From: Nocardioides panacis
GTDB taxonomy: Bacteria > Actinomycetota > Actinomycetes > Propionibacteriales > Nocardioidaceae
Length of the DNA stretch: 64,000 nt
Reading direction: 5' to 3'
Assembly (NCBI RefSeq): GCF_019039255.1
Contig: NZ_CP077062.1
Location: forward strand, 4,650,001 to 4,714,000
The notes under the pieces are model-generated. The model ran no database searches, had not been told where the DNA came from, and was given only the letters and a program-made list of their open reading frames with translations. Below, piece by piece: positions 22,186-26,604 of this stretch; position 1 is the stretch's first letter, and every line of letters begins with the position of its first letter. A program made the translations under genes and the position numbers.

Positions 22186-22189
<4 letters not shown>

Positions 22190-23209
22190 CCACCGCCACC
22201 CAGATCCGCCTCGCCCGTCGCCCCGAGGGCGAGCCGGACGACGCGACGTACGCGATCACCCACGACGAGGTGCCCACGCCGGGCCCCGGCGAGCTGCTGC
22301 TCCGCGTGGTCTACCTCTCGCTGGACCCCTACATGCGCGGCCGGATGAGCGCCGCGAAGTCCTACGCCGCGCCGGTCGAGGTCGGCGACGTGCTGGTCGG
22401 CGGGACGGTGTGCCAGGTGGAGACCTCGAACCACCCGGACTACGCCGCCGGCGACTACGTGCTGTCCTACTCCGGCTGGCAGACCCACGCGGTCAGCGAC
22501 GGCTCCGGGCTGCGCAGGCTCGACCCGTCCGTCGCCCCCCCTGTCGACGGCGCTCGGCGTGCTGGGCATGCCCGGCTTCACGGCGTACGCCGGCCTGCTG
22601 GAGATCGGCAAGCCGCAGGCCGGTGAGACCGTCGTGGTCGCGGCCGCCACCGGGCCGGTCGGGTCGGCCGTCGGCCAGATCGCCCGGATCAAGGGCGCGC
22701 GGGCGGTGGGCATCGCCGGCGGCCCGGACAAGTGCCGGGCGCTGACCGAGGAGTTCGGCTTCGACGTCGCGGTCGACCACCGGTCCCCGACGTTCGCCGC
22801 CGACCTGAAGGCAGCGGTGCCGGACGGCATCGACGTGTACTTCGAGAACGTCGGAGGGCACGTCGCCACCGAGGTGTTCAAGCGGATGAACCTCTACGGG
22901 CGGGTCCCGGTCTGCGGGCTGGTCGCGAGCTACAACGCGACGTCCGCCCCCGAGGGCCCGGACCGGCTGCCCGGCTTCATGGGCCTGGTGCTGCGGCAGA
23001 GCCTGACCGTGCGCGGGTTCATCCAGGGCGAGTTCACGAAGTCGCACGGCCGCGACTTCGTGCGCGAGATGTCCGGCTGGGTGGCCGACGGGTCGGTGCG
23101 GTACCGCGAGGACGTCGTGCGCGGGCTGGAGAACGCGCCCGAGGCGTTCCGCGGCCTGCTCACCGGCCGCAACTTCGGCAAGCTCGTGATCCAGGTCAGC
23201 GACGAGTAG
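22186..23209 (+). CDS. MDR family NADP-dependent oxidoreductase, frameshifted at a C7 run
   Basis: This zinc-free medium-chain reductase is like prostaglandin/curcumin reductase (CurA). The first frame encodes the GroES-like part (VVYLSLDPYMRGRMSAAKSY, ending SGLRRLDPSVAPP). The second frame resumes at LGVLGMPGFTAYAGLLEIGK and the NADP site VVAAATGPVGSAVGQIARIK, and runs to a normal end. The switch is in seven C residues at 22535-22541. Six would give VAPLSTALGVLGMPG and an uninterrupted 340-residue protein. The insertion is probably a sequencing error. It would reduce an enone or aldehyde in the pathway of the two genes upstream. Confidence 0.85.
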
Positions 23210-23220
23210 CCACGCGGACG

Positions 23221-23734
23221 TGCACTCGAGTGCATCCGTCCGCCGGCCGGCCGCTCGCGCGCGGCACCGCCACCCTGCTGCGGTCGACGTCGCGGTCCGG
23301 GCTGCGTCGTGCCGTGCGCCGGGATGGGTGGTGCGCGAAGCCCGGGGTCGCTACGCCCTGCCGGGTGCCGAGCTCCTCCGCCGCGCCGAGGCGATGCCCG
23401 GCAGGTACCGCACCCGCTGTCTCCGGGTCGCCGGCCTGGCGGACGGTGCTGCCGCCAACCCGTTCGAGTCCGTGCTCCGCGCTGTCGCCTGGAGGTTCCC
23501 GGCCTCGCGGTGACCCCGCAGGTGTGGGTCGACCCGATCAGCCGCCCCGACCTCGTCGACGGGGCGTCGGGAGTCGTCCTCGAGGCGGACTGCTTCGAGC
23601 TCCACGGGCGGGTGCTGCGCTTCTCCTGGGAGCACGTCATGTTCGAGCCGCAGTAGGTGCGGCAGGTCCTGCTCGCCGCCGTGGAACCGGTGGGACGGGC
23701 ACATGAGGACACCGTCCGGAGCCGCAGAGGTTGA
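23221..23734 (+). pseudogene. Decayed AbiEi/DUF559-like gene
   Basis: Fragments of one protein family lie in different frames. LLRSTSRSGLRRAVRRDG is followed in another frame by VVREARGRYALPGAELLRR and RVAGLADGAAANPFESVLRA. The end of the protein, VTPQVWVDP...GVVLEADCFELHG, then RVLRFSWEHVMF, is in a third frame. The usual sequence between FELHG and RVLRFSWE is missing, and a TAG (23654-23656) interrupts before VRQVLLAAVEP. Several lesions show real decay, unlike the single-base homopolymer shifts elsewhere. Intact relatives have a DUF559-type endonuclease-fold C-terminus. A relative starts at 63527. Confidence 0.65.
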
Positions 23735-23774
23735 GCCCCACCTATGGGCCCGGCAGGTGCCCGTCGCACGGGTG

Positions 23775-25205
23775 TCAGATGCCGATGCCGAGCCGGTTCA
23801 GCGGGCCGACGAGCTGGGCCTCCTCGTAGGCCAGGTGCCCCAGCAGCACGTCGGACAGGGTGCCCACCGCCCGCCGGACGCCGTCGACCCCGCCGCCGGT
23901 CGCGACCAGGTCGACCAGCGCCCGGTCCACGTCCTCGAGCACCGCCGCGACGTCGTGGTGCTCGCGCTCCAGACGCTCCACGACCGGCGCCAGGGCCGGG
24001 TCGGCGTGCACCAGCCGCGGGAACATCGTGGTGTCCTCGATGGTGTGGTGGGTGGTCACCACCCGGCAGTAGCTCTCGCAGTAGGTGCCGAGAGTCCAGC
24101 TGTTCTGCCGCATCGTCATCGTGTTGATCATCGACCGGGCCGCGCCGACGTCGACGTGCCCGCGCGCCACCTGCTCCACGAGGTCCTGGACCTGCGCGAG
24201 CTCGGCGCGCAGGTGGTCGTGGATCGCGACGAGGTGGTCGCCGTCGCCACCGGAGGGCGCCGCCACCTCGACCCGCTCGGGGATCTCGGGGGCGGGCGGC
24301 GCGGGGGCCGCGGCCGCAGCGGGCGCGAGCCGCTCGGCCTCCACCAGCTCCCGGACCGCCGGCGCGACCTCCTCGGCGAACCGGTGCAGGTCGGTGCGGT
24401 CCTCGACGTCGGCCATCAGCACGAACCCGCTGATGCCCTCGTCGAGCGCCAGGCCGGCGAGCTGCTCGACCCACACCGAGGGCGGCCCCTGCAGGAAGCC
24501 GGAGCCGGTGAACGACCCCTGCACGTTGAACATCCGCCGCACGTCCTGCGGTGAGCGGCCGGCGTCGAGCGCCGCCCGGTCGATCCGCTCGTTCATGCCG
24601 GCCAGCTCCTCGGGGGCGGCGTACCCCAGGCTGGGCAGCCAGCCGTCGGCGAGCCGTCCGGTGAGCTCGAGCATCCGCGGCTTGTAGGCGCCGAGCCACA
24701 GCCCGATCGGGTGCACCGGGAGCGGCCCCGGCCTGGCGCCGTCCAGCCGGTAGTGCTCCCCCTCGAGCCGCGGCGTGCGCCCCGGGGCCCACAGCGCCCG
24801 GATCACGCCGATCGCCTCCTCGAGCGCGTCCACGGCCTGCCGCGGGGTACGACGGACGCCGCCCATCGCCACGATCCCGTCCCAGAAGGCGCCGGCCCCG
24901 AGGCCGAGCTCGACGCGGCCGCCGCTGAGCACGTCGAGGGACGCGGCGCTGCGGGCCAGCACCGCCGGCGGCCGCAGCGGCAGGTTCGCGACGTTCGGGA
25001 AGACCGTCACCCGCTCGGTGCGAGCCGCGACGTGGGTCAGCAGCGTCCACGCGTCCAGGTGGGCCGGCTGGTAGGGGTGGTCCTGCACGCTGACCGAGTC
25101 CAGCCCGAGGAGGTCGGCCTCCAGCGCGGCGGTGACCACGAGGTCGGCCCGGCCGGCGAGCGGCGGGAGGAAGACGCCGAAGTGCAGCTCGTGCCCGTAG
25201 TCCAT
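23775..25205 (-). CDS. Luciferase-like (LLM/F420-type) oxidoreductase fused to a hemerythrin domain
   Basis: This 476-residue fusion begins with a bacterial-luciferase-like TIM barrel in residues ~1-300 (FGVFLPPLAGRADLVVTAAL, SVQDHPYQPAHLDAW, LGLGAGAFWDGIVAMGG). That domain uses F420 or FMN. An Ala/Pro-rich linker (APAAAAAPAPPAPEIPERV) follows. The C-terminal ~150 residues form a four-helix hemerythrin HHE domain with the di-iron ligands in HDHLRAEL, TTHHTIEDTTMFP, EREHHD and HLAYEEAQL. Both domains look complete. Hemerythrin may sense O2, NO or peroxide or supply O2/iron chemistry to the flavin domain. The substrate is unknown. ATG 25205 is chosen on homology. Confidence 0.88.
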   Translation of the reverse strand: MDYGHELHFGVFLPPLAGRADLVVTAALEADLLGLDSVSVQDHPYQPAHLDAWTLLTHVAARTERVTVFPNVANLPLRPPAVLARSAASLDVLSGGRVELGLGAGAFWDGIVAMGGVRRTPRQAVDALEEAIGVIRALWAPGRTPRLEGEHYRLDGARPGPLPVHPIGLWLGAYKPRMLELTGRLADGWLPSLGYAAPEELAGMNERIDRAALDAGRSPQDVRRMFNVQGSFTGSGFLQGPPSVWVEQLAGLALDEGISGFVLMADVEDRTDLHRFAEEVAPAVRELVEAERLAPAAAAAPAPPAPEIPERVEVAAPSGGDGDHLVAIHDHLRAELAQVQDLVEQVARGHVDVGAARSMINTMTMRQNSWTLGTYCESYCRVVTTHHTIEDTTMFPRLVHADPALAPVVERLEREHHDVAAVLEDVDRALVDLVATGGGVDGVRRAVGTLSDVLLGHLAYEEAQLVGPLNRLGIGI

Positions 25206-25308
25206 GACGTCATCCTGCCGTCCGTCCGGGAGACGGACCCGCCGGTCCCGGTTTCGCGGCCGTCCAGGTGGGCAGGTGTGAGCCACCTCTCACTCGGTAG
25301 GAGCCCCC

Positions 25309-26604
25309 ATGACCAGCGCCACGACACCGGAGCAGACCAAGCACAAGCTCCCCGTCCGCACCCTCATCGCTGCCAGCGTCGGCAACGCCGTCGAGTGGTA
25401 CGACTGGACCGTCTTCGCGACGTTCTCGATCTACTTCGCCACCCAGATCTTCTCCGACGCCAACGAGTCGGCCGCGTTCGTCGGCACCTTCGCGACGTAC
25501 GCCGTGGCGTTCTTCTTCCGGCCGCTCGGCGGGATGCTGCTCGGCCGGTACGCCGACCTGCGCGGCCGCAAGCAGGCGATGCTGCTGACGATCGCGCTGA
25601 TGGCCGGCGGGTCGTTCGTGATCGCGATCCTGCCGACCTTCGACCAGGTCGGCTGGCTCGCGCCGATCCTGCTGCTCGCGGCGCGCATCGCCCAGGGCAT
25701 GTCGCTCGGCGGTGAGGTCTCGAACGCCTCGGCCTACCTCGCGGAGATCGCGCCCGCCGAGCGTCGCGGCCGGTACTCCTCGTTCTTCTACACCTCCACC
25801 GGTACGGCGGTCCTCCTCGCGTCGCTGCTCGGCGCCCTGCTGGCCAGCAACCTCAGCGACGACCAGCTCGCGAGCTGGGGCTGGCGCGTGCCGTTCTTCG
25901 TCGGCGGCCTGCTCGGGCTCGTCGGGGTCTGGCTGCGGCGCGACATGGCCGAGACCGAGCAGTTCGAGGAGAACAAGGCCAAGGCGGAGGCGATCAAGAA
26001 CCCGCTGATGATGACGCTGCGCGAGCACCCCCGCGCGGTGGCGCAGCTGATGGGCTTCACGCTGCTCTCCACGCTCTGCTACTACACGTTCTTCTCGGCG
26101 CTGACGCCCTTCGCGGTCAAGCAGCAGAAGCTCGACGACGGGATGGTCTTCTGGGCGCTGTCGATCGCGACCGCGCTGTTCGTGGTGCTGCAGTACCCCT
26201 TTGGCTGGACCGCCGACCGCTTCGGCCGCAAGCCGCAGATGCTCATCTGGTCCGGCCTGATCGCGGTCGGCATCGTCCCGATGTCGCACCTCATCGTGCC
26301 CGGCGCGAGCTTCGGGTCGGTGCTGCTGGTGTTCTGCTTCGGCCTCGGGCTCTACGCGATCTTCGCCTCCATCGCCCCCGCGATCATGAGCGAGCTGTTC
26401 CCCACCGAGCTGCGCGGGCTGGGCATCGGCGCCTGGTACAACCTCACCGTCGCGGTCTTCGGCGGCACCGCGCCGCTGGTGATCCAGTGGCTCGGCGGGG
26501 CCGGGCACAGCAACTGGTTCTTCTGGTACGTCGCCGCGGGCGCCGTGGTCGCGTTCCTCGCGATCCTCACGCTGCCGGAGACGAAGGGATCGGTCCTGAA
26601 GTGA
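25309..26604 (+). CDS. MFS transporter, metabolite:H+ symporter (MHS) family
   Basis: This 431-residue permease has 12 helices. The MHS signature is at the N-terminus (GNAVEWYDWTVFATFSIYFA), with GGMLLGRYADLRGRKQAM after helix 2 and RIAQGMSLGGEV in helix 4. Relatives carry alpha-ketoglutarate, proline/betaine, citrate or shikimate with protons. TAGGAG precedes the ATG. It overlaps the M20 peptidase gene in GTGA, so the pair may take up and hydrolyse an N-acylated amino acid or similar compound (inference). Confidence 0.9.
   Translation: MTSATTPEQTKHKLPVRTLIAASVGNAVEWYDWTVFATFSIYFATQIFSDANESAAFVGTFATYAVAFFFRPLGGMLLGRYADLRGRKQAMLLTIALMAGGSFVIAILPTFDQVGWLAPILLLAARIAQGMSLGGEVSNASAYLAEIAPAERRGRYSSFFYTSTGTAVLLASLLGALLASNLSDDQLASWGWRVPFFVGGLLGLVGVWLRRDMAETEQFEENKAKAEAIKNPLMMTLREHPRAVAQLMGFTLLSTLCYYTFFSALTPFAVKQQKLDDGMVFWALSIATALFVVLQYPFGWTADRFGRKPQMLIWSGLIAVGIVPMSHLIVPGASFGSVLLVFCFGLGLYAIFASIAPAIMSELFPTELRGLGIGAWYNLTVAVFGGTAPLVIQWLGGAGHSNWFFWYVAAGAVVAFLAILTLPETKGSVLK

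What the first reader, a model, noticed from the sequence alone, without database searches (positions are those of the whole stretch)
23775..25205. Luciferase-like oxidoreductase fused to a hemerythrin domain
Both domains appear complete, with flavin/F420 barrel motifs and all His/Glu/Asp di-iron ligands, joined by an Ala/Pro linker. A di-iron O2/NO-binding domain in the same chain as an F420- or FMN-dependent enzyme suggests redox sensing, or oxygen supply or removal, at the flavin site. I know of no described function for such a fusion.
Basis: partly seen in the sequence, partly recalled or inferred. Interest (0 to 1): 0.6.

Follow-up and report, generated by a model that had tools for sequence, protein, structure and literature searches.

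The report
F420-type enzyme with di-iron tail
Many actinobacteria carry an enzyme of the F420-using luciferase-like family that is naturally joined to an iron-binding hemerythrin-type domain; the fusion is real, old and maintained, but what the iron domain does for the enzyme has not been tested.

Summary
Window 23775-25205 (-) is one intact 476-aa gene: a luciferase-like barrel (to about residue 293), a short Ala/Pro-rich linker and a hemerythrin-type (HHE) domain (321-476). It is no lost stop codon: I found 59 distinct fused proteins under at least 11 family labels of the class, plus one outside it. The barrel ranks closest to F420 enzymes; 137 of 140 sampled genomes with a match carry the F420 gene cofD, against 185 of 254 others. 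One correction: this protein has the four-His/two-Glu ligand set of YtfE/ScdA-type proteins, but Ala where oxygen-carrying hemerythrins have a fifth His (37 of 59 fused proteins have His there). The HHE subfamily has an invariant Cys-x3-Cys. The same barrel family also occurs without it, and fused or adjacent to an FAD-linked oxidase, so the C-terminal module is exchangeable. Best reading: a tethered, bifunctional enzyme, the F420 barrel doing hydride chemistry and the di-iron module a linked oxygen, peroxide or NO step. Function is inferred, not shown. Ten searches of an open-access library found no description of the fusion; one paper lists separate HHE and F420-oxidase genes in one Streptomyces cluster.

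The parts
23775..25205 (-). LLM-hemerythrin fusion gene, 476 aa, ATG start at 25205, stop 23775-23777
24327..25205 (-). Luciferase-like (F420 LLHT-type) barrel, residues 1-293
   Evidence: Pfam Bac_luciferase 161 bits; nearest solved structures by sequence Mer and FGD1, by fold FGD1, FGD2, Mer and Adf
25077..25082 (-). Asp42-His43, aligned to an Asp-His pair of FGD1 (the catalytic role of that His in FGD1 is recalled); both invariant in the 19-sequence alignment A1
24246..24326 (-). Ala/Pro-rich linker, residues 294-320; dN/dS about 1 in one pair of genes (27 codons); lacks the WDExxRP-type block that a pattern finds in 47 of 59 fused linkers
23778..24245 (-). Hemerythrin/HHE domain, residues 321-476; ligands H329, H386, E390, H416, H457, E461; Ala420 at the place of the fifth His
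24066..24080 (-). Cys376-x3-Cys380 just before the HxxxE motif of the HHE domain, invariant (59 of 59 fused, 7 of 7 others in the set)
25309..26604 (+). Divergent MFS transporter, 103-bp gap; an MFS gene is also the divergent neighbour in L035. Context, not shown to be functionally linked

Best explanation
It is a bifunctional, tethered oxidoreductase. The N-terminal barrel is an F420-dependent luciferase-like hydride transferase acting on a small organic substrate. The C-terminal HHE domain binds two irons with four His and two Glu, in the manner of YtfE/ScdA, and carries out an O2-, peroxide- or NO-dependent redox step linked to the same reaction or substrate. The flexible linker keeps the two sites together without a fixed docking geometry. 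Shown: the fusion, its wide distribution, co-inheritance, purifying selection on both domains (in one pair of genes), the conserved ligand and Cys sets, and related barrels that carry an FAD-linked oxidase in place of the HHE module. Inferred: F420 as cofactor, two irons bound, and that the second module catalyses a step rather than sensing or protecting.
For: F420: the best NCBIfam hits are F420 LLM groups, though all 25 shown are below their cut-offs; the closest solved structures are F420 enzymes by sequence and by fold; cofD in 137 of 140 genomes with a P0001 match (HHE-only matches included) against 185 of 254 others, the 3 exceptions being 84, 82 and 75% complete. Maintained fusion: 59 distinct fused proteins, one more outside the class; 58 rows on a tree with a 56-row group at 100/100, 50 of them HHE fusions; domain identities correlate, r = 0.76, highest of 2000 permutations 0.23; dN/dS 0.26 (barrel) and 0.31 (HHE) against 1.03 (linker, 27 codons) between the window gene and L035. 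Iron site: ligands in 59 of 59 fused, in the HxxxE...H...HxxxE pattern of the four-His/two-Glu set given for ScdA and YtfE in PMC12412097 (passages). Exchangeable module: related barrels fused to an FAD_binding_4 oxidase (11 distinct rows; Pfam for 3 of them) or next to such a gene (12 rows).
Against: The barrel also occurs without either partner in the same reading frame or an FAD-type frame within 400 bases (16 of 97 rows, an upper bound since several loci are short), so the HHE module is dispensable in relatives. Only 5 barrel positions look fusion-specific. Linker length varies from 17 to 107. [quoted passage not shown] The HHE models are poor over residues 365-393 and 369-392, exactly the Cys/HxxxE stretch, so site geometry is untested. 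FMN enzymes are interleaved among the fold matches from rank 14. The cofD association is not corrected for phylogeny.
Confidence: 0.4

Rival explanations
1. The HHE domain is a sensor or gate: it binds O2, NO or iron and changes the activity or stability of the F420 barrel, as the hemerythrin domain of FBXL5 does for its own protein (FBXL5 role recalled).
For: Hemerythrin domains occur in other signalling proteins, e.g. a chemotaxis protein (PMC4919030, passages). The invariant Cys-x3-Cys beside the ligand motif could be redox-responsive.
Against: In related barrels the same position is taken by an FAD-linked oxidase domain, an enzyme rather than a sensor. Few barrel positions are fusion-specific. 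The linker is long and variable.
Confidence: 0.22
2. The HHE domain is a local scavenger: it removes O2, H2O2 or NO, or holds iron, near the barrel and protects the enzyme or its intermediate, without a step in catalysis.
For: The barrel occurs without it in relatives, and members of the HHE subfamily occur unfused; a flexible tether fits mere co-localisation.
Against: Cys pair and ligands are invariant in 66 of 66 domains and the fusion has persisted in many families, which is a lot for general protection. F420H2 is not readily oxidised by air.
Confidence: 0.22
3. The barrel uses FMN and works as a true monooxygenase, with the di-iron domain feeding O2 to reduced flavin.
For: Same superfamily as FMN luciferases; FMN LLM families and structures also match, more weakly.
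Against: F420 families and structures rank first; cofD co-occurrence; Ala at the fifth-His position in this protein, which an O2-carrying hemerythrin would be expected to keep.
Confidence: 0.1
4. Ordinary domain shuffling: two independent proteins made from one gene, with no linked function.
For: HHE domain and barrel each occur apart; the linker looks neutral in one pair.
Against: Co-inheritance (Mantel r 0.76), long persistence, and the same position taken by another redox module.
Confidence: 0.06

Closest known systems
F420-dependent luciferase-like hydride transferases (LLHT: FGD, Mer, Adf; TIGR03619 and TIGR03560 groups)
   Same: Barrel fold, closest by sequence and by fold; Asp-His aligned to that of FGD1; host carries cofD.
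   Different: Scores are below the cut-offs of the 25 NCBIfam models shown; carries a C-terminal HHE domain; substrate unknown.
RIC/HHE di-iron proteins (YtfE, ScdA); structure NMB1532 (2p0n)
   Same: Four-His/two-Glu pattern HxxxE...H...HxxxE; 2p0n is the top structural match, Z 13.5. That 2p0n is an HHE protein is recalled, in line with its alignment.
   Different: No ScdA-type N-terminal domain found; fused to a barrel; invariant Cys-x3-Cys; 37 of 59 fused proteins have a fifth His.
Oxygen-carrying hemerythrin (e.g. DcrH-Hr, 2avk)
   Same: Predicted four-helix bundle (Z 11.0 with 2avk); 37 of 59 fused proteins have His at 420.
   Different: This protein has Ala at 420.
F420H2 oxidase FprA (di-iron flavoprotein of methanogens, named so in a reference title in PMC8498797)
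   Same: Pairs F420 with a di-iron site.
   Different: Other domains: flavodiiron proteins have beta-lactamase-like and flavodoxin domains (start of the abstract of PMC6033852, listing); that FprA is one of them is recalled.
HHE gene and F420-dependent oxidase gene in a Streptomyces kebangsaanensis phenazine cluster (PMC5712208, passages)
   Same: HHE protein and LLM F420-type protein encoded close together.
   Different: Separate genes (3283 and 3288), no test of function; not compared with this protein by sequence here.

Membership tests
F420-dependent LLHT | Luciferase-like barrel | tested here: met
F420-dependent LLHT | Passes a curated F420 LLM family cut-off of NCBIfam | tested here: not met
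   best is TIGR03619 with 118 bits, cut-off 166.9; all 25 models shown of 32 are below theirs
F420-dependent LLHT | Host carries the F420 gene cofD | tested here: met
   own genome 8.8e-120, over the cut-off; other F420 genes not sought
F420-dependent LLHT | Binds and turns over F420, not FMN | not testable with these tools
   needs protein
HHE/RIC-type di-iron domain | Pfam Hemerythrin domain | tested here: met
   62.4 bits against 25.3
HHE/RIC-type di-iron domain | Four His and two Glu ligands in the order H...HxxxE...H...HxxxE | tested here: met
   59 of 59 fused; pattern from PMC12412097 (passages)
HHE/RIC-type di-iron domain | Two irons bound | not testable with these tools
   needs protein
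RIC protein proper (YtfE/ScdA) | N-terminal ScdA-type domain | tested here: not met
   only two Pfam families at E 0.001 or better
O2-carrying hemerythrin | Fifth His, four residues after H416 | tested here: not met
   Ala420 in the window protein; His in 37 of 59 fused
Hemerythrin fold | Predicted four-helix bundle like solved hemerythrins | tested here: inconclusive
   best match 2p0n, Z 13.5, 2.9 A over 141 residues, but Foldseek gives no match at E 0.001, other helical bundles reach Z 12.5, and residues 369-392 are poorly modelled
F420H2 oxidase FprA | Flavodiiron domains (beta-lactamase-like plus flavodoxin) | tested here: not met
   Pfam finds Bac_luciferase and Hemerythrin only

The most novel reading that the evidence does not exclude
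A self-contained F420-linked di-iron enzyme in aerobic actinobacteria: hydride taken from or given to F420 on the barrel is coupled, within one chain or dimer, to reduction of O2, peroxide or NO at an HHE di-iron site, with the invariant Cys pair as relay. It would be a functional counterpart of FprA built from unrelated parts, and one of at least two solutions, the other using an FAD-linked oxidase on the same kind of barrel.
Probability: 0.12. Interest if true: 0.8.

Novelty: new variant of a known kind. Interest (0 to 1): 0.5.

Why it matters
Many F420-dependent barrels of actinobacteria have no known function (PMC8498797, passages). A widespread, old fusion of one subfamily to a di-iron domain, and of its relatives to an FAD oxidase, gives a direct handle: it suggests that this barrel works with an oxidative partner, supplies natural variants (with and without the fifth His, with and without the module), and lets the partner's role be tested by domain removal.

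Tried and rejected
Fusion by a lost stop codon or assembly error: rejected. A gene neighbourhood conserved across families as a clue to substrate: not seen in the 33 fused loci mapped; shared neighbours were found among few genomes each (genes called by my own codon-score script, not a standard gene finder). Seven of these 33 have a divergent MarR gene (Pfam for L096, L099, L103, L112; L089, L097, L111 by cluster); others have other neighbours, e.g. a Lrp/AsnC-type gene upstream in L101. Fusion-specific residues in the barrel: 5 positions, none striking. Viral contigs: 4 stretches matched a pattern, none a relative. Sigma-70 promoters and terminators in 23600-25400: none found, hardly informative at this G+C.

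Structure: the full-length model (19 sequences, mean pLDDT 75.4, pTM 0.62) is good for most of the barrel and poor for 365-393; the HHE-only model (5 sequences, mean pLDDT 71.5) is poor for 369-392. No claim is made about domain docking. A profile of 36 HHE domains found no solved structure at E under 0.05; NMB1532 (2p0n) came second at 0.095 after a designed protein at 0.064. The single HHE domain found nothing credible.

Single origin of the fusion: not decided. The tree needs at least 5 changes of the HHE label, 3 of them forced by strong branches, which may be one gain with losses or several gains; 26 of 94 inner branches are open and long branches meet in the FAD group.

Beyond the class: of 296 genomes drawn from the phylum 43 had a match at 1e-50. 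I looked closely at three loci labelled outside the class: G547 has the fusion (L160), G513 has an FAD-fused barrel followed by a second barrel frame (L162), G603 has a barrel only (L161). Other phyla were not surveyed; one Chloroflexota locus (L052) has the barrel alone as far as its 6 kb show.

Rows dropped before counts: HHE hits that did not cover nearly the whole domain, and identical domains; barrel hits covering under 230 positions, and identical ones; L048 left out of alignment A1 because its barrel frame is short; 36 of 66 HHE domains were put into A3. Of the 7 domains without a full barrel, L107 is preceded by a barrel remnant and L139 lies at a locus edge, so 5 are unfused genes. 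The fused-length count of 39 of 47 genomes is mine, by eye from the frame lengths, not a domain check. 'Solo' is an upper bound: several loci are short, L080 has an FAD-type frame overlapping it, and L033 lies next to an FAD fusion when more flank is read (L114).

Full report
What is there. The stated coordinates hold one intact gene on the minus strand, 23775-25205, ATG at 25205, 476 residues. Pfam finds a luciferase-like domain (residues 11-228, 161 bits) and a hemerythrin/HHE domain (323-466, 62.4 bits, cut-off 25.3). The AlphaFold model continues the barrel to about residue 293. Residues 294-320 are an Ala/Pro-rich linker.

Real and not local. Of 98 related genomes 51 had a match at E 1e-20 or better, and of 394 genomes across the class 140 at 1e-35; these counts include matches to one domain only. 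By direct analysis of reading frames in fetched loci I found 59 distinct fused proteins and 7 HHE domains without a full barrel, later one more fusion in a genome labelled outside the class (G547, L160). The 58 fused rows on the tree come under 13 family labels, of which the two named ones may coincide with unnamed ones, so at least 11. The HHE subfamily alone was sought in the same 394 genomes: 73 matched at 1e-12, 47 of them strongly (3e-36 or better, then a gap to 5e-22); in 39 of the 47 the frame is long enough for the fusion, by length only. Between the window gene and L035 (79% identical) dN/dS is 0.26 for the barrel, 0.31 for the HHE domain and 1.03 for the 27-codon linker. Domain identities among the 59 proteins rise and fall together (Mantel r 0.76; highest of 2000 permutations 0.23). 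So the fusion looks selected and co-inherited.

The barrel. NCBIfam's best hits are F420 LLM groups (TIGR03619 118 bits, TIGR03560 107.5); all 25 models shown, of 32, are below their cut-offs. By sequence the nearest solved proteins are F420-dependent Mer and FGD1; by fold FGD1, FGD2, Mer and Adf lead, with FMN enzymes such as SfnG interleaved from rank 14. Asp42-His43 aligns with an Asp-His pair of FGD1; the catalytic role of that His in FGD1 is recalled. The F420 gene cofD is present in 137 of the 140 genomes with a match and in 185 of the other 254 (Fisher p 9e-12, phylogeny not corrected); the three without it are only 84, 82 and 75% complete. For the 47 genomes with the HHE subfamily the figures are 45 of 47 against 277 of 347 (p 0.005). 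In 42 genomes that I chose earlier, 41 had cofD. I favour F420, without proof.

The iron domain. H329, H386, E390, H416, H457 and E461 are present in 59 of 59 fused and 7 of 7 other domains. This is the order and, for HxxxE, the spacing of the four-His/two-Glu set reported for ScdA and YtfE (PMC12412097, passages; [quoted passage not shown] The fifth His of oxygen-carrying hemerythrins would be at 420 (recalled pattern HxxxH). The window has Ala; of the 59 fused proteins 37 have His, 20 Ala and 2 Ser, with at least 5 changes between His and not-His on the tree. Also invariant are Cys376, Cys380, His387, Asp391, Arg333 and Arg366; two other HHE proteins of the same genome, a small control, lack both Cys. 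The model of the domain alone matches NMB1532 best (2p0n, Z 13.5, 2.9 A over 141 residues), but other helical bundles reach Z 12.5 and Foldseek gave nothing at E 0.001.

An unexpected motif. A pattern for a block around W-D-E-S-x-R-P, some 30 residues before the first HHE helix, is found in 47 of 59 fused proteins and in 4 of the 7 others; some of the rest show looser forms of it. The window protein and its closest relative lack it and have the two shortest linkers of the 59. Its role is unknown; as unfused HHE proteins carry it too, it seems to belong to the HHE module.

An exchangeable C-terminal module. Of 97 distinct barrel rows, 58 are fused to HHE, 11 to an FAD_binding_4 oxidase domain (Pfam for L039, L051 and L118), 12 stand next to an FAD-type frame and 16 appear alone, the last an upper bound. 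On the tree a 56-row group at 100/100 is mostly HHE fusions with 6 solo rows, and further HHE fusions sit among FAD-type and solo rows. A divergent HxlR gene is near the barrel in 12 of the 20 loci mapped that have a barrel without HHE (one cluster; Pfam for L039 and L116), and an aldehyde dehydrogenase cluster occurs in 9 of them, all Streptomyces or Kitasatospora (Pfam for L039); 7 of 33 mapped HHE fusions have a divergent MarR gene. That HxlR and MarR regulators often respond to reactive or aromatic compounds is recalled. In the window itself the divergent neighbour is an MFS transporter.

How it most likely works. Barrels of one family pair with either of two different redox modules. The simplest account is that the barrel catalyses F420-linked hydride transfer on an organic substrate, and that the partner does a connected oxidative or reactive-species step. 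The variable linker argues for tethering rather than a fixed electron path, and F420's obligate hydride chemistry (PMC8498797, passages) argues against direct one-electron transfer to iron. Sensor and scavenger readings remain close rivals, since relatives of the barrel occur without the domain and few residues are fusion-specific.

Literature. Ten full-text searches of the open-access library gave no description of this fusion; the search listings held few papers and I opened passages of five. PMC5712208 lists an HHE gene (3283) and a putative F420-dependent oxidase gene (3288) in one Streptomyces phenazine cluster, as separate genes of untested function. The F420 review PMC8498797 contains the word hemerythrin 0 times. 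The hemerythrin survey PMC4919030 contains luciferase 0 times in its main text; it covers the O2-binding type and reports a negligible number of those in Actinobacteria. PMC5591006 mentions both words in unrelated places. Subscription papers and InterPro were not available, and domain-architecture tables may well list this combination without comment.

Noticed in passing
window 22186-23209 (+): The convergent neighbour is a zinc-type dehydrogenase-family (MDR) oxidoreductase gene read in two frames that meet near 22538; L035 has it as one 342-aa frame. Broken gene or sequencing error.
   Followed up: partly
L116:4485-6878, L117:4386-6632, L118:5932-8181, L039:2752-4998, L162:597-2918: LLM barrels fused to an FAD_binding_4-type oxidase. 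L039-type loci pair such a fusion, whose barrel is diverged, with a second barrel gene that overlaps it by 4 bases.
   Followed up: partly
fused linkers, e.g. L009, L062, L067; unfused L105, L106, L120: Conserved W-D-E-S-x-R-P block before the HHE domain, found by pattern in 47 of 59 fused proteins and absent from the window protein.
   Followed up: partly
window 23946-23948 (residue 420): The fifth-His position is His, Ala or Ser among relatives, with at least 5 changes on the tree: a natural experiment on di-iron coordination.
   Followed up: partly
L084:7296-7655, L087:7545-7946, L094:7312-7701, L098:5819-6208: Small genes directly upstream of the fusion on the same strand in two families; Pfam finds TPR repeats in L084 and L094, the other two are in the same clusters.
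   Followed up: no
L105, L106, L108, L120, L151: Unfused members of the same Cys-containing HHE subfamily, about 186-208 aa.
   Followed up: partly
L160:1488-3071 (G547): The fusion in a genome labelled same phylum but outside the class: barrel 9-288 and HHE 368-519 of a 528-aa frame.
   Followed up: partly
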